Source of the DNA: Candidatus Poribacteria bacterium
GTDB taxonomy: Bacteria > Poribacteria > WGA-4E > UBA9662
DNA: 7,037 bases
Direction: 5' to 3'
Assembly (NCBI GenBank): GCA_002699335.1
Contig: PACG01000052.1
Location: 32,261-39,297 of the forward strand
Notes under the pieces: generated by a model
Database searches by the model: none
The model's input: the letters and a program-made list of their open reading frames with translations, nothing else
Told to the model about the DNA's origin: nothing
Translations under genes and position numbers: made by a program
Shown here: in pieces, positions 1 to 6,042 of the stretch
Numbering within the stretch: the first letter of the stretch is position 1
How the letters are laid out: each line of letters starts with the position of its first letter

Positions 1-408
1 CTACTCTGGACAGATGCATTGGATGTTTCTCACGAAATTTCTCAGCGGATTCATACCAAAACAGGTAGCTATTGGCACGCTATAATGCATCGACGAGAAC
101 CCGACTACAGCAACTCAAAATATTGGTTTGGCCGGGTAGGAAATCACCCAATTTTTCCCGAGCTTAGGCAAAAATCCGTTGATTGCCTAGCGGGTAGCGG
201 TGCTAAGTCTGAGGCCTTATCAGACATTGCTTCAACCATCGAAAAAAACGAAGATTGGGATTCGTTCGTATTTATCGACTGGTGCCAAGCAGCTGATCGG
301 TCAAACGATCAAGGGCTACCTGAAGACAGCACGCAATTTCTGCAAAAGCTGCAGACGGTGGAATTTGAATTATTACTCGATTACTCTTACCGTAATGCAC
401 TGGTTTAA
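1..408 (+). CDS. Conserved hypothetical protein, 3' part (5' end outside window)
   Basis: The frame is open from the first base and ends in TAA at 406-408, so about 135 residues are visible and the start lies upstream of the window. A TTG at 19 could serve as a start, but the residues before it (LLWTDALD) continue the same pattern, so I treat the gene as truncated by the edge. Visible conserved-looking blocks are GSYWHAIMHRREPDYSN (about 24-40), a YWFGRVGNHPIF stretch, and a C-terminal WDSFVFIDWCQAA segment followed by an acidic/aromatic tail ending in YSYRNAL. From memory this matches a family of uncharacterised proteins in Planctomycetes and related phyla; I know of no assigned function. 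There is no signal peptide or membrane segment in the visible part; the many His, Arg, Glu and Trp residues suggest a soluble, possibly enzymatic protein. It sits 30 nt upstream of the selenoprotein candidate on the same strand and is probably co-transcribed with it. Confidence 0.8.
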   Translation, partial: LLWTDALDVSHEISQRIHTKTGSYWHAIMHRREPDYSNSKYWFGRVGNHPIFPELRQKSVDCLAGSGAKSEALSDIASTIEKNEDWDSFVFIDWCQAADRSNDQGLPEDSTQFLQKLQTVEFELLLDYSYRNALV

Positions 409-425
409 TTTAGTACGATCTTGAT

Positions 426-429
426 GGAG
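426..429 (+). promoter_or_regulatory. Ribosome binding site for the selenoprotein candidate
   Basis: A GGAG core lies 9 nt before the ATG at 439. It fixes the start of the gene upstream of the in-frame UGA. No comparable signal is placed to serve the TTG at 574, which argues that translation really begins at 439 and must pass the UGA. Confidence 0.6.
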
Positions 430-438
430 AAAAGACAA

Positions 439-780
439 ATGAGAGTCGATTGGTTCTATCGACGGACCGGCTGAACATCCTGTAAAAAAGCCCAAGAGGT
501 TCTTGGGCCAACGGAAGTTGTCGAATATGGAAATGCTAGTAAAGAAAAATTAAGTAAGGAACAGGTAAAGGTTTTGGTTAATGAATCTAGCCAAATTCGT
601 GTGGCTAAGGGAAAACGAACTTTAACTTTCGACCCACAACAGGATGATCAGGAAGAAATATTAAAATCAATTCTGGGCCGGAGTAGTACACTACGGGCAC
701 CAACCTTACGGATTGGCTCAAACCTGATCGTTGGCTACAATGACGATTTATACCGACAAATTCAGCAGAGTTTAACCTAA
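439..780 (+). CDS. ArsC-family (thioredoxin-fold) selenoprotein with in-frame UGA
   Basis: Reading through the TGA at 472-474 gives a 113-residue protein ending in TAA at 778-780, close to the usual size of small ArsC/Spx-fold proteins. The N-terminus MRVDWFYRRTG leads as a first beta strand into U12-T-S-C15-K-K-A-Q, a CxxC-type redox motif at the helix N-cap with selenocysteine replacing the first cysteine. Downstream are VAKGKRTLTFD (55-65) and the C-terminal block LRAPTLRIGSNLIVGYND (85-102), where Pro88 is at the expected place of the thioredoxin-fold cis-proline. The same reading frame is therefore protein-like on both sides of the UGA. From memory, ArsC-like proteins with Cys or Sec at this position are known in several bacterial phyla; they are presumed thiol/selenol oxidoreductases, and arsenate reduction is not established. 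The spacer between the redox helix and the next strand looks a few residues shorter than in relatives I recall. Expression requires SelA, SelB, tRNA-Sec and SelD, none of them in the window. The alternative is a gene disrupted by a nonsense mutation, but the adjacent SECIS-like hairpin makes that less likely. Confidence 0.85.
472..474 (+). other. Selenocysteine UGA codon
   Basis: TGA is codon 12 of the frame starting at 439, exactly where a redox cysteine would be expected (GUTSCKKAQ). The change from a Cys codon (TGT/TGC) to TGA is a single base, as is common for Sec/Cys exchange. Other genes in the window end in TGA (at 2436, 3384 and 6545), so UGA is not globally reassigned here. Confidence 0.85.
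490..508 (+). promoter_or_regulatory. Bacterial SECIS element (hairpin just after the UGA)
   Basis: The arms GCCCAAGA (490-497) and TCTTGGGC (501-508) are perfectly complementary and enclose the loop GGT (498-500). The loop begins 23 nt after the last base of the UGA and starts with two guanosines. Bacterial SECIS elements lie inside the coding region, with a short apical loop carrying G at its first positions about 16-37 nt after the UGA, where SelB binds; this hairpin fits. If the A497-U501 pair opens, the loop becomes AGGUU, closer to the loop of the E. coli formate dehydrogenase element. No T run follows, so it is not a terminator. The hairpin also encodes A18 to G23 of the protein. Confidence 0.75.
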
Positions 781-1086: not shown

Positions 1087-1342
1087 AGTTTCACTCCCAC
1101 TCGACCCACGTGGTCATCCCTACGAAATCGACTAATCAGCCTGCCTGCGCGGCGTCGCTTGCAGTTTACAACTCGCTCTGCGACCTTTTAAGTGAAGTGG
1201 CTCGAGCGGGTGTTTTTGATTTCAATCGGGTAGAGATCTTCTTTTGTTAGCTATAGAAGGTAAACCAGGTCAAGACAAGTACCGTTCTGTGCAATGTGAA
1301 AATTGGCGTGATTTCGGCCATAGGAGGCAAATAACTGAATGA
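1083..1342 (+). pseudogene. Possible remnant of a frameshifted gene (two short overlapping frames)
   Basis: An ATG frame at 1083-1250 gives 55 residues beginning MKFHSHSTHVVIPTKS and continuing through CAASLAVYNSLCDLLSEVA. A second frame, open from 1220, yields LLLLAIEGKPGQDKY and ends RRQITE at a TGA (1340-1342) that overlaps the start ATG of the next gene (1339). Both peptides look protein-like, and the frames overlap around 1220-1250, where short T runs occur (1213-1217, 1242-1245), so one frameshift would join them. The first part faintly recalls the C-terminal side of SIS (sugar isomerase) domains, but I would not assign it. Options are a decayed gene, a sequencing indel, or chance. Confidence 0.2.
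1322..1327 (+). promoter_or_regulatory. Ribosome binding site of the PorV/PorQ-family gene
   Basis: A full AGGAGG lies 11 nt before the ATG at 1339, slightly longer than the optimum. It supports this ATG, which also gives an intact signal peptide. Confidence 0.65.
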
Positions 1343-2436
1343 AGGACTTTTTTCGGCCTTCTTTTCTTCTCAAACTCGTACTGATTCTAGCTTTAATCAG
1401 TAATTGGGTTCAGGCTGGGGCGGGGAGAACAGGTGCACAAATTCTCAATCTCGGGGGCGGTACCCGAGCAGCCTCGCTCGGCGATGCCTTTTCTGCTGTT
1501 AACGGTGATGTGACTGCACCGTTATGGAATCCCAGTGGTCTGAGTGGTATCACCAACCTACAGGCCACCCTGTCCTACAAAGACTATAGCCAACTGTTTG
1601 GCGAAGCTAGTGACGGTCTCTACTACGCCTTTTTTGCTGGCGCCACACACCTAGAGAATATTGGAACGGTAGCCGCCACTCTACAGGTTCAGGGACAAGG
1701 GAAAATTGCCATTACCACTAATTCACCCGAAGTAATTCGGGAAGAAGATCTCGGTACTAACTGGGTTATGACAACCTCTTACGCTGATCAACTGACCGAT
1801 AATTTGGCGGCGGGAATCAGTGGTAAAGTCATCCGCCAGCGATTGGCTCAATATGGTGGCCGCGCCTACGCCGTCGACTTTGGACTGCAATACGATCTAC
1901 AACAACGACTACCTGTTCCAGTTCGTCTGGGTGTTGCCGTGCAAAACTGGGGAACCCGCATTAAGTTTAAAGACGAGAACCAGAGCGATCCACTCCCACG
2001 AGCGCTGAGACTTGGCACTTTGGTTTCTCTGCTAGACGTCAAACACCACCGTATCAATCTGGTGGGTGATCTGACAGCTGCCATCGACAAATTGAGAGAG
2101 GATGACGACGAAGGAGTAGAGGTCTATCTGGAAAATAACCCCGATACGACACGAGACCAACTTATGTCTGAGCGAGGGGTTGGCATTCACGCCTTTGAAT
2201 GGCGACATCTACAGAAGAGCATCGGTTTGGAGTATGCCTTGGGAAAAATTCTCTATCTCAGGGCTGGCTATAAAAAAGATCCGGGGATGCCGATCTTCCC
2301 TGAGTTAACCGACTATCTAACCTACGGTTTCGGCGCTAGAGTCTATTTTGGACAGCTGGATTTCGCTCAAGTGCCTGGCGGTGGGCCCAACAACAATCGA
2401 TTGAATGTCTTTGCCTTGCGGTTAATTTTCGATTGA
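1339..2436 (+). CDS. PorV/PorQ-family outer-membrane beta-barrel protein
   Basis: 365 residues. Residues 1-26 form a clear Sec signal peptide: charged start, hydrophobic LKLVLILALI, and a likely cut after VQA26. The mature N-terminus carries the family signature, GAQILNLGGGTRAASLGDAF (32-51) followed by TAPLWNPSGLSG (59-70), the LxxG.GaRaaaMGgAf...aa.WNPAgLa pattern of PorV/PorQ and UPF0164 proteins. The remainder is rich in alternating polar/hydrophobic strands (for example DNLAAGISGKVIRQRL and AYAVDFGLQYDL), as in a 14-strand FadL-like barrel. The chain ends in FALRLIFD, close to an aromatic C-terminal barrel signal. In Bacteroidetes, PorV shuttles cargo of the type IX secretion system; outside that phylum the family is widespread and its role is mostly unknown. 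The neighbour 21 nt downstream is also an envelope protein, so the pair is probably one operon. The family call is strong; transport or secretion function is inference. Confidence 0.88.
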   Translation: MKDFFRPSFLLKLVLILALISNWVQAGAGRTGAQILNLGGGTRAASLGDAFSAVNGDVTAPLWNPSGLSGITNLQATLSYKDYSQLFGEASDGLYYAFFAGATHLENIGTVAATLQVQGQGKIAITTNSPEVIREEDLGTNWVMTTSYADQLTDNLAAGISGKVIRQRLAQYGGRAYAVDFGLQYDLQQRLPVPVRLGVAVQNWGTRIKFKDENQSDPLPRALRLGTLVSLLDVKHHRINLVGDLTAAIDKLREDDDEGVEVYLENNPDTTRDQLMSERGVGIHAFEWRHLQKSIGLEYALGKILYLRAGYKKDPGMPIFPELTDYLTYGFGARVYFGQLDFAQVPGGGPNNNRLNVFALRLIFD

Positions 2437-2457
2437 AGGGGCGAAAGTAACAACAGT

Positions 2458-3384
2458 ATGCAGCAGTTATCATTTCTACTGGTCTTACTGACTTTGAATT
2501 TCAACAGCCTAGCAGATAAACCGGTTGAGTTAGTTAAACCTGTTAAAGGAGATTTTGAGTTCAAACCTACTTCTAACCAAAGAGTCTTCCCCCGGCTTGA
2601 TCGAAGGTTGAACCAGATCGGAGTTCGTCTCCGAACACCATTGGTACTAGCGAATTTTCAAGAATTCGCGATGTCCTCGACTGCTATTGAGGAAACACAG
2701 CCTGATTCACCTTCTCTCGACCATCGTCTGGTCAAAGATCCCAACCGAGCCTTCATGCAATCGCTAATTTTGCCAGGTATGGGGCAGATTTATACTGAAT
2801 CCAAACGAGGTTACGCCTGGTTGAGTGCAGAAGTAGCATTGTTGGTTGGCTATGTGGTAGTTCACCGACAAGCGAAATCGCTGGAGAGCGATTACGTGCA
2901 CCGGGTTAAAGATGGAGTCGCTTTCGAAGGACCAACCAAATTTGATCAGTGGAACATGGAGGACTTTGAGCACGCTACCATGTACGATAATTGGCACAAT
3001 GTTTACAACGAGTCTAATGGTGAACCATCGCACCCAAGAATCGGCAAATGGTACTGGAAAGATCGGAAGCAGTTTAAGGATATAACCCGTAAAAAAGAGG
3101 AGGAAGACTCCCCCCAAAGAGAGATAGCTCTCAAATCTCGCCAAGACTCCAATTCGACTTACGAACGAGCTCGTAGTGTTCTCGGCCTGGTTATCCTCAC
3201 CCATCTAGCTAGCGCGGTCGATGCCCGAATTTCAGCCAAGTTGTTTAATCAAAGACATCAACTGAGCGAAAGCCTCGATCTGGAATTTGCGCTAAGACCA
3301 CAGTTAACTACAGTCGGTAAAAGGGGACGACTTCACCGGTTTCCTCCGTACAAAGTTGAAAACCGAATTGTCTTTCGATTTTGA
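2458..3384 (+). CDS. DUF5683-like envelope protein with signal peptide
   Basis: 308 residues. Residues 1-19 look like a signal peptide (LSFLLVLLTLNFNSLA, cut after A19). A low-complexity linker (20-90) precedes the recognisable core: DPNRAFMQSLILPGMGQIY (94-112), a run of KRGYAWLSAEVALLVGYVVV (117-135) that is a probable membrane helix, and near the C-terminus VLGLVILTHLASAVDARISA (241-260). The PG.GQ.Y motif followed by a membrane helix, then the distant H..SA.DA segment, is the DUF5683 pattern found next to outer-membrane proteins in many FCB-type genomes. Between the two hydrophobic parts is a long polar region (138-238) rich in Trp, Tyr and charges. The C-terminus (KVENRIVFRF) alternates and ends in Phe, as barrel or membrane-anchored strands often do. 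The function is unknown. No good ribosome site precedes the ATG: a GGGG at 2438-2441 is 16 nt away. Translation may be coupled to the gene before it. The last 29 nt overlap hyuB. Confidence 0.72.
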   Translation: MQQLSFLLVLLTLNFNSLADKPVELVKPVKGDFEFKPTSNQRVFPRLDRRLNQIGVRLRTPLVLANFQEFAMSSTAIEETQPDSPSLDHRLVKDPNRAFMQSLILPGMGQIYTESKRGYAWLSAEVALLVGYVVVHRQAKSLESDYVHRVKDGVAFEGPTKFDQWNMEDFEHATMYDNWHNVYNESNGEPSHPRIGKWYWKDRKQFKDITRKKEEEDSPQREIALKSRQDSNSTYERARSVLGLVILTHLASAVDARISAKLFNQRHQLSESLDLEFALRPQLTTVGKRGRLHRFPPYKVENRIVFRF

Positions 3385-4939
3385 TCCTATCCGCTTAGAA
3401 CTTTACCGTAACCTGCTGACCTCTATCGCTGAAGAGATGGGGGTTTCTCTCTGTAGGTCTGCATTCTCAGCCAATATCAAAGAGCGACGCGATTTCTCCT
3501 GCGCGATCTTCGACCAGCAAGGGAACATGGTTGCTCAAGCCGCTCACATCCCCGTTCATTTGGGGGCGATGCCCCTTTCGGTTCAATCCGCTATTCAGCA
3601 GATCCAAATGTTGGCCGGCGATACCGTTTTGCTGAACGACCCTTACGCTGGCGGCACCCATCTACCGGATCTTACCCTGGTTTCACCCGTTTATATCGCA
3701 GGGACGCTGGCGTTTTTTGTGGCCAACCGGGCCCACCACGCTGATGTTGGCGGAATGACTCCCGGATCAATGCCGCTGTCGACCCATATTGTGCAGGAGG
3801 GTGTTCGGATTCCCCCAGTCAAACTAATTCGCCAAGGGGAAATGGATAACGATCTTTTATCGATAGTTTTAGCTAACGTCAGAACCCCAGTAGAGAGAAG
3901 TGGCGATTTGGAGGCGCAAATCGCCGCTAATCATATTGGACGACAGCGGTTGATCGAGATTTCGGAGAAATACGGCGTGGCCGAGGTTGGCCAATATATG
4001 TCGGCTTTACAAGACTACAGCGAACGGATTGTACGCAAAACCCTACAACAGATTCCAAACGGTCGGTATGCCGAAACCGATTTTTTGGATAACGATGGTA
4101 TTACCGATCAGGCTGTTCCGATCAGCGTCACGGTCATCATCGAGGACGCTTCTGCCATCATTGACTTCTCCGGTAGCGCCCCACAAGTAGAGGGAAGTGT
4201 TAATGCCGTTTATGCTATTACCCTGTCGGCCGTCTTCTATGTTTTTAGGTCTTTAGTCCGGCAACAGATTCCGACTAATTCAGGCTGTCTACGCCCCATC
4301 AAGGTGATCGCCCCACCCAATACAGTGGTCAATGCCCAATTCCCCGCCGCGGTGGCGGGTGGAAATGTGGAGACTTCTCAGCGGATCGTGGACGCCGTCT
4401 TAAGAGCCTTGTCGAACGCTTGCCCTGACTTGATTCCCGCCGCCAGCTCAGGCACCATGAATAACCTGACCATCGGCGGTCGTAGCGGTCAACAAGACTT
4501 TGCCTATTATGAAACCATTGGTGGAGGAATGGGAGCAAGGCCGGATCAGGACGGTATCTCAGCCATTCAAACACACATGACTAATACCCTGAATACGCCT
4601 ATTGAAGCCATCGAGACGACTTACCCCATGCAGATTGAACAATATGCCATTCGTCAGAATAGTGGCGGGAAAGGTAAAACCTGTGGTGGCGATGGTATTA
4701 TCCGTTCATTTCGGTTGCGGTCTCCTGCTCAGGTTACGGTGCTGTCTGAGCGGCGAAAGCTCCCACCCTATGGGCTCGGTGGTGGTTGGCCGGGGAAATG
4801 TGGAAAAAACACTCTAATTCGTGGTGAGCAAGAGATTAATCTGGAAGGCAAGTTCAGTATTCACGGTCAAGCCGGGGATATCTTTCAGATCGAGACACCG
4901 GGTGGCGGTGGCCGCTCGGTACCTGAGGAAGAGCACTAA
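3356..4939 (+). CDS. hyuB: Hydantoinase B / 5-oxoprolinase-type subunit (HyuB family)
   Basis: 527 residues, the usual length of a stand-alone HyuB. The N-terminal DPIRLELYRNLLTSIAEEMG (10-29) and the block AFSANIKERRDFSCAIFD (36-53) are typical. They are followed by AAHIPVHLGAMPLSV (62-76), NDPYAGGTHLPD (94-105), NRAHHADVGGMTPGSMP (124-140) and EGVRIPPVKL (148-157); the chain closes with TPGGGG near residue 517. HyuB works with HyuA, an ATPase-like subunit, to hydrolyse cyclic amides such as N-methylhydantoin or 5-oxoproline; related pairs carboxylate ketones. No hyuA is in the window, so the substrate cannot be named. The start is a TTG at 3356 inside the previous gene: the frame is open only back to 3308 and contains no ATG or GTG before the conserved N-terminus (the next TTG is 3368). 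No ribosome site is visible, so translation is probably coupled to the upstream gene. The protein is soluble, with no signal peptide. Confidence 0.9.
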   Translation: MKTELSFDFDPIRLELYRNLLTSIAEEMGVSLCRSAFSANIKERRDFSCAIFDQQGNMVAQAAHIPVHLGAMPLSVQSAIQQIQMLAGDTVLLNDPYAGGTHLPDLTLVSPVYIAGTLAFFVANRAHHADVGGMTPGSMPLSTHIVQEGVRIPPVKLIRQGEMDNDLLSIVLANVRTPVERSGDLEAQIAANHIGRQRLIEISEKYGVAEVGQYMSALQDYSERIVRKTLQQIPNGRYAETDFLDNDGITDQAVPISVTVIIEDASAIIDFSGSAPQVEGSVNAVYAITLSAVFYVFRSLVRQQIPTNSGCLRPIKVIAPPNTVVNAQFPAAVAGGNVETSQRIVDAVLRALSNACPDLIPAASSGTMNNLTIGGRSGQQDFAYYETIGGGMGARPDQDGISAIQTHMTNTLNTPIEAIETTYPMQIEQYAIRQNSGGKGKTCGGDGIIRSFRLRSPAQVTVLSERRKLPPYGLGGGWPGKCGKNTLIRGEQEINLEGKFSIHGQAGDIFQIETPGGGGRSVPEEEH

Positions 4940-5058: not shown

Positions 5059-6042
5059 CTATTCACTTAAACTGATGGAGGCTAGAAATTGAGCAACAGC
5101 CTCTCCAATCTGGGCCAGCGTCTGACGAAATCCGGCCGCGTCGGCCAGTTGCATCATCTCTTCAAACGACAACCCACCCGTGATTTGGCTGAGTTGGACA
5201 TTACAGTTTAATCCGTCCGGCATTTGGTCGAGTGCCAATTGCTCTACAAGCCTGGGATTTCGAATCTTTTGATAGCGCCGATTTTCACTCATCACCGCAT
5301 ACAATAGCTGTTCATGCTTGGGTGACCAGCCTGTAGGAAATTTCTCTGCCAATTGGCCTTGGGGCTCTGTCAGACGCATGAAATGGGCTTGCACCGACTC
5401 GACAGGAGTTTCAACCAGGTTGAACATCAGATCCGACCAGTCGAGTTGGCACTCCGCCTTACCAAATTGATGAAAAGAGAACAGGTCCTGTATGGGACGG
5501 TTTTGTGGGGTATAAGTTCCGTTCAGCAGATAAAGATTCAGTCCCGGCTGAACTGACTTAATCAGGGCATCACCAATGACATGGCTTATCCAGCCCATAA
5601 CATATGCTACCCGTCGCTCCGGTTGCGTATAGAAGGCAAATGTATCGGTAATCGCTGCCTCAAAATAGCTGGGCAATTGTGACCATTGCAAACCGAATTT
5701 GGCTTGCCCATTACGCCAACCAAAAAGAAGATGTGATCGCCCATAGAACATTCGATGGATCTCTTGTGGCGTATAAGTGATACCATGGAATGTCAGAGTG
5801 TATGCATGCAGAGGACATTGATCCTTCGGGCAACTTCTAGAAAAATCGCCACCATAACCGTATTCTCCACCACATTCTGGGCATTTCCCCCCAGGTAGCG
5901 TCATCACATCCGCACCAAGATAGGCCCCGGCCAGATAGCTGTCCTGGTGCTCACTGATCAGTCGCGCTATTTGGGGGGCGCGTTCCAGAACTATTTGGTG
6001 TGCGAGAATAGCGTAAGTCAAATGGCCGATAATACCGCTCAT
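5059..6042 (-). CDS. Zinc-dependent phospholipase C-like protein with a four-cysteine insertion
   Basis: 327 residues, ATG at 6042 with AGGA 5 nt upstream (6048-6051 on the complement). The N-terminal MSGIIGHLTYAILAHQIV carries a histidine (H7) and is followed by YLAGAYLGADVM (36-47) with Asp45. Later comes GWISHVIGDAL (150-160), an HxxxD pair (H154, D158). This matches the metal-binding layout of the Zn-dependent phospholipase C domain (PF00882 type), in which an N-terminal residue, a YLGA.GPD-type Asp and an HxxGD motif hold zinc ions. Between the first two metal blocks and the rest sits CPECGG (54-59) and, 14 residues on, CPKDQC (71-76): two cysteine pairs that resemble a zinc ribbon and are not part of the usual domain. 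There is no signal peptide, unlike secreted phospholipases, so a cytoplasmic hydrolase or nuclease-like role is possible; the substrate is unknown. It is convergent with hyuB and has its own upstream region of 502 bp. Confidence 0.72.
   Translation of the reverse strand: MSGIIGHLTYAILAHQIVLERAPQIARLISEHQDSYLAGAYLGADVMTLPGGKCPECGGEYGYGGDFSRSCPKDQCPLHAYTLTFHGITYTPQEIHRMFYGRSHLLFGWRNGQAKFGLQWSQLPSYFEAAITDTFAFYTQPERRVAYVMGWISHVIGDALIKSVQPGLNLYLLNGTYTPQNRPIQDLFSFHQFGKAECQLDWSDLMFNLVETPVESVQAHFMRLTEPQGQLAEKFPTGWSPKHEQLLYAVMSENRRYQKIRNPRLVEQLALDQMPDGLNCNVQLSQITGGLSFEEMMQLADAAGFRQTLAQIGEAVAQFLASISLSE

What the first reader, a model, noticed from the sequence alone, without database searches (positions are those of the whole stretch)
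439..780. Hidden selenoprotein: ArsC-fold protein with Sec-Thr-Ser-Cys active site
Seen directly: the frame from ATG 439 to TAA 780 has a single in-frame TGA, at the expected redox position (GUTSCKKAQ), and is protein-like on both sides, with a ribosome site in front. UGA ends three other genes in the window, so code reassignment is unlikely. Known: small ArsC/Spx-fold proteins use a CxxC-type centre and Sec-containing members exist. Inferred: this is a functional selenoenzyme, and the organism has a Sec machinery. Standard gene calling would lose it or report only residues encoded after 574.
Basis: partly seen in the sequence, partly recalled or inferred. Interest (0 to 1): 0.8.

Follow-up and report, generated by a model that had tools for sequence, protein, structure and literature searches.

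The report
ArsC-like selenoprotein hidden by a UGA
A small redox protein in an uncultured bacterium, probably a Poribacterium, very likely uses the rare amino acid selenocysteine at its active site and is cut short by ordinary gene finders, but it belongs to a selenoprotein family that is already catalogued.

Summary
Window 439-780 (+) is one frame with a single in-frame TGA (472-474); the 113-residue product reads GUTSCKKAQ. It belongs to an already named family, NCBIfam NF041106 "ArsC family (seleno)protein" (106.6 bits, cut-off 85); residues 1-45 and 46-113 match that family separately. A hairpin starting 15 bases after the UGA (490-508: 8 bp, loop GGU) meets four published criteria for a bacterial SECIS and is the best of its kind behind 252 UGA trinucleotides in the window. 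Of 24 homologues, one has Cys at the position, 10 are annotated from just after it, 10 start further downstream, and three, near-identical to the window, show Trp, most simply a code-4 translation of the same UGA. Code reassignment and sequencing error are unlikely. The predicted fold is Spx/ArsC-like. The likely role, inferred, is a selenol/thiol oxidoreductase rather than a classical arsenate reductase. Host: probably Candidatus Poribacteria. The Sec machinery could not be checked because no genome is held. The family (UxxC) is in print, apparently since 2008, so this is a new member of a known kind.

The parts
439..780 (+). CDS of the ArsC-family selenoprotein, 113 residues, read through TGA 472-474
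   Evidence: NF041106 106.6 bits against cut-off 85
426..429 (+). GGAG, probable ribosome-binding site, 9 nt spacer to ATG 439
   Evidence: sequence
424..426 (+). alternative in-frame ATG (product MEKRQMRVDW...), the start of database entries P0002 and P0007
472..474 (+). in-frame TGA, predicted selenocysteine 12
   Evidence: Cys in homologue P0008
481..483 (+). TGT, Cys15: presumed resolving residue of the UxxC pair
   Evidence: sequence; role inferred
490..508 (+). SECIS-like hairpin GCCCAAGA-GGU-UCUUGGGC: 8 bp, 3-nt loop at 498-500, 23 nt between UGA and loop
   Evidence: criteria in PMC13188914
691..708 (+). LRAPTL, in the most conserved stretch of the family, with presumed cis-Pro88 and Ala87 where E. 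coli ArsC has Arg
   Evidence: cis-Pro role recalled
574..780 (+). 68-residue ORF from TTG 574, the truncated gene call found in databases (P0004)

Best explanation
The gene encodes a 113-residue selenoprotein of NCBIfam family NF041106. UGA 472-474 is read as selenocysteine by SelB and Sec-tRNA, guided by the hairpin at 490-508. The product has an Spx/ArsC-type thioredoxin fold with Sec12 just before, and Cys15 in, the first turn of the first helix. Sec12 most likely attacks a disulfide, peroxide or other oxidised substrate, and Cys15 resolves the selenyl-sulfide, which cellular thiols or thioredoxin then reduce. Supported by several lines of sequence evidence: the frame, the family and a Sec/Cys position. 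Predicted by computation: the fold and the hairpin. Inferred: Sec insertion in vivo, the redox cycle and the class of substrate.
Confidence: 0.85

Rival explanations
1. UGA is translated as Trp (code 4 or suppression) in this organism, so the protein is a Trp-containing one.
For: P0002, P0003 and P0007, near-identical to the window, carry Trp there.
Against: Three of six other ORFs end in TGA and Trp is TGG 22 times in 1825 codons. The PorV product that ends in TGA has 365 residues, and the first ten relatives listed have 343-392, so that TGA looks like a true stop. Reading the window from ATG 424 with code 4 gives the first residues of P0002 and P0007, as a gene caller using code 4 would. Trp is not expected at the redox position, and the nearest full-length homologue outside the species has Cys.
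Confidence: 0.05
2. A nonsense mutation or sequencing error made the TGA: pseudogene or artefact of a Cys protein.
For: One base change (TGT or TGC to TGA) would do it, and a SECIS-like hairpin can arise by chance.
Against: The same truncated call is in P0004 (22 contigs, the longest 61,350 bases) and in diverged P0005 and P0006. The frame is otherwise intact, and none of the six near-identical or close entries P0002-P0007 shows Cys. Hairpin control: 100 of 20000 recodings.
Confidence: 0.03
3. The functional product is the 68-residue piece starting at TTG 574, with no read-through.
For: It is what the gene callers report (P0004).
Against: It lacks the first strand, the first helix and the redox motif of the fold. 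Residues 1-45, including those before the UGA, still match the family (E 3.4e-9). P0002 is identical to the window over residues 1-39 apart from position 12.
Confidence: 0.03
4. It is a selenocysteine-containing Spx-type redox switch that binds RNA polymerase, rather than an enzyme.
For: The closest solved structures by sequence, and by Foldseek, are Spx, with an SCRKA context where the window has SCKKA.
Against: It misses the cut-offs of the three Spx-type models listed: 27.9 against 75.05 for TIGR01617, 24.6 against 152 and 21.7 against 123 for the two Spx models. No polymerase-binding evidence.
Confidence: 0.08
5. It is a genuine arsenate reductase using Sec.
For: Pfam ArsC 25 bits against 24; the family is called arsenate reductase-like in print.
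Against: TIGR00014 (arsenate reductase) is not listed for it at E <= 0.1, while E. coli ArsC scores 137.2. The residue before the conserved Pro is Ala in the seven family members aligned and Arg in E. coli ArsC. None of the six neighbouring ORFs scanned matches an arsenic-resistance family.
Confidence: 0.07

Closest known systems
NCBIfam NF041106 ArsC_rel_Se_1, 'ArsC family (seleno)protein'
   Same: Scores above the family cut-off over nearly the whole length; UxxC as the review gives for the family
   Different: Window motif is U-T-S-C, while the 120 profile-search rows shown start MTC or MSC; host probably Poribacterial
'Arsenate reductase 2' (cd03032, UxxC) of the GOS survey 2008, PMC2398784 (passages seen)
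   Same: UxxC, ArsC/Spx-like; the 2026 review (PMC13188914, passages) cites for NF041106 its reference 61, which appears to be this paper
   Different: Those sequences were not compared directly here
Spx (1z3e, 6gho and others)
   Same: Predicted fold and SCRKA / SCKKA context
   Different: Below the cut-offs of the Spx-type models listed; Sec instead of the first Cys (the Spx CxxC is recalled)
E. coli ArsC (glutaredoxin-dependent arsenate reductase)
   Different: K-12 ArsC: 13% identity, CGTS instead of UTSC, RP instead of AP at the conserved proline; hhalign probability only 2.5

Membership tests
NF041106 ArsC family (seleno)protein | score above curated cut-off | tested here: met
   106.6 bits against 85
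NF041106 ArsC family (seleno)protein | Sec or Cys at the first position of UxxC | tested here: met
   TGA at codon 12, Cys at codon 15; Cys in P0008
Bacterial selenoprotein gene | in-frame UGA aligned with Cys of homologues | tested here: met
   P0008 Cys; it is the one full-length Cys homologue among the 24 rows; three rows have Trp
Bacterial selenoprotein gene | bSECIS: loop 3-9 nt, stem 4-16 bp, G in first two loop positions, 16-37 nt from UGA, MFE <= -7.5 kcal/mol | tested here: met
   loop GGU, 8 bp, 23 nt, -12.6 kcal/mol for 486-512 (criteria)
Bacterial selenoprotein gene | selA, selB, selC, selD in the genome | not testable with these tools
   no genome held for this window
Bacterial selenoprotein gene | Sec shown in the protein | not testable with these tools
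   needs mass spectrometry or 75Se labelling
Glutaredoxin-dependent arsenate reductase (TIGR00014) | score above cut-off 106.05 | tested here: not met
   not listed at E <= 0.1; control E. coli ArsC 137.2
Spx/MgsR (TIGR01617) | score above cut-off 75.05 | tested here: not met
   27.9 bits
Spx/MgsR (TIGR01617) | binding to RNA polymerase alpha C-terminal domain | not testable with these tools
   no structure of a complex or assay

The most novel reading that the evidence does not exclude
Poribacteria use a selenium-based Spx-like redox sensor or reductase of a new activity; the UTSC-type members would form a lineage-specific branch of NF041106 with a distinct substrate.
Probability: 0.12. Interest if true: 0.55.

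Novelty: new member of a known kind. Interest (0 to 1): 0.3.

Why it matters
It adds a selenoprotein gene, probably from an uncultured Poribacterium, and shows concretely how standard gene calling drops its N-terminal 45 residues, Sec included, in public data. The passages of the 2026 review that I saw call the functions of such selenoproteins largely uncharacterised (PMC13188914), so a heterologous assay of one member would inform many.

Tried and rejected
DNA of relatives was sought and not found: genome contigs with P0001 and with the window's hydantoinase B, both scans used; viral contigs with alignments A2 and A3 and with a degenerate DNA pattern; plasmids with P0001 and P0016; phages with P0015. 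So conservation of the UGA and hairpin could not be counted on DNA. Family NF041106 in the 14 control genomes of the genome search: a match in 3, over the cut-off in 0. Codon usage before the TGA: 11 codons, inconclusive. No Rfam match at E <= 5 and no tRNA in the window. hhalign of A2 with E. coli ArsC gave probability 2.5 only.

Papers. 'Poribacteria' with 'selenocysteine': 2 papers; with 'seleno': 8 (listings only, save PMC5649159). PMC5649159 (passages) says that SelA and SelB co-occur in the majority of one sponge's symbiont bins and lists at least two Poribacteria bins, but the passages do not say that those have them. 'NF041106': 1 paper. Passages only were seen of PMC9312934 (lists an 'Arsenate reductase-like protein', COG1393, UxxC), PMC4807772 and PMC1794560. 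PMC5029168 holds none of the three terms looked for.

Full report
Observation. The window carries at 439-780 (+) a frame with one TGA (472-474) whose read-through product is 113 residues with G-U-T-S-C-K-K-A-Q. A GGAG lies 9 nt before ATG 439. Table-11 gene finding keeps only the 68 residues from TTG 574, and the database holds exactly that piece (P0004).

Family. hmmscan assigns the read-through product to NCBIfam NF041106 'ArsC family (seleno)protein' at 106.6 bits, above the cut-off of 85, covering residues 3-105 and profile 1-107. Pfam ArsC just passes (25 against 24). Residues 1-45 alone give E 3.4e-9 and residues 46-113 alone E 5.9e-16, on consecutive parts of the profile. The Spx-type models listed stay below their cut-offs, and the arsenate reductase model TIGR00014 is not listed at E <= 0.1, although E. 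coli ArsC scores 137.2 with it.

Sec position. Of the 24 homologues (sequences, starts tabulated), one full-length protein has Cys at the position (P0008, GCTSCK), 10 are annotated as starting M(T/S)C right after it, 10 start further downstream, and three that are near-identical to the window have Trp. In the profile search (5136 hits, 120 shown) the 120 shown start MTC (118) or MSC (2). This is what a UGA read as stop would give, but the sample leans that way because 14 of the 16 rows behind the profile were truncated members. The Trp entries: the window read by code 4 from ATG 424 gives the first 44 residues of P0002 and P0007 letter for letter, so a code-4 gene call on the same UGA is the simplest reading; a TGG variant cannot be excluded without their DNA.

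Code. Three of the six other ORFs end in TGA, and Trp is TGG 22 times in 1825 codons (no internal TGA there, by construction of an ORF). The PorV product, which ends in TGA, has 365 residues, and the first ten rows of its search have 343-392.

SECIS. The hairpin 490-508 has 8 Watson-Crick pairs and loop GGU, starting 15 nt and with its loop 23 nt after the UGA; 486-512 folds at -12.6 kcal/mol. The 2026 review PMC13188914 (passages) gives as criteria: loop 3-9, stem 4-16, G in the first two loop positions, spacing 16-37 to the loop, MFE <= -7.5. All are met. Among 252 UGA trinucleotides on both strands this one has the best such stem, and 100 of 20000 synonymous recodings of the next 20 codons do as well (the script, written from recall, allowed loops of 3-14 nt and set no energy limit). 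Less favourable: the plain folding z-score is -1.26 with 19 of 200 shuffles as good, and 429 of 3000 recodings fold the 45 nt after the UGA at least as well.

Host. In a search with the window's PorV protein, 5 of the 120 rows shown (of 263 found) carry an organism name, and these five say Candidatus Poribacteria. No genome is held, so the Sec machinery was not tested. Print says that SelA and SelB co-occur in most bins of one sponge's symbionts, a set that includes at least two Poribacteria bins (PMC5649159, passages); whether those two have them I did not see. That the window comes from a sponge is not shown.

Novelty. The review PMC13188914 lists 'Arsenate reductase-like protein, NF041106, UxxC' with reference 61, apparently the GOS paper of 2008, which lists 'Arsenate reductase 2, cd03032, UxxC, 42 selenoproteins' (PMC2398784, passages). 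So the kind is known; this is a new member in an uncultured lineage.

Noticed in passing
window 1-408 (+): C-terminal 135 residues of an ORF ending 30 bases before the selenoprotein gene on the same strand; no Pfam or NCBIfam match above cut-off. It may share an operon with it.
   Followed up: no
window 1339-3384 (+): A PorV/PorQ family gene followed by a DUF5683 gene; the five organism-named PorV hits among the 120 shown are Candidatus Poribacteria.
   Followed up: partly
window 3356-4939 (+): Hydantoinase B/oxoprolinase gene (700 bits), listed from a TTG that overlaps the end of the DUF5683 gene; a scan of genome contigs found no close relative.
   Followed up: partly
window 5059-6042 (-): Weak zinc-dependent phospholipase C-like protein (15.4 bits, below cut-off 26.8) with a cysteine-rich stretch CPECGGEYGYGGDFSRSCPKDQCPLH.
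   Followed up: no
P0002, P0003, P0007 (database proteins): Trp at the Sec position in database proteins near-identical to the window, probably a translation by code 4; such entries could hide other selenoproteins as Trp proteins.
   Followed up: partly
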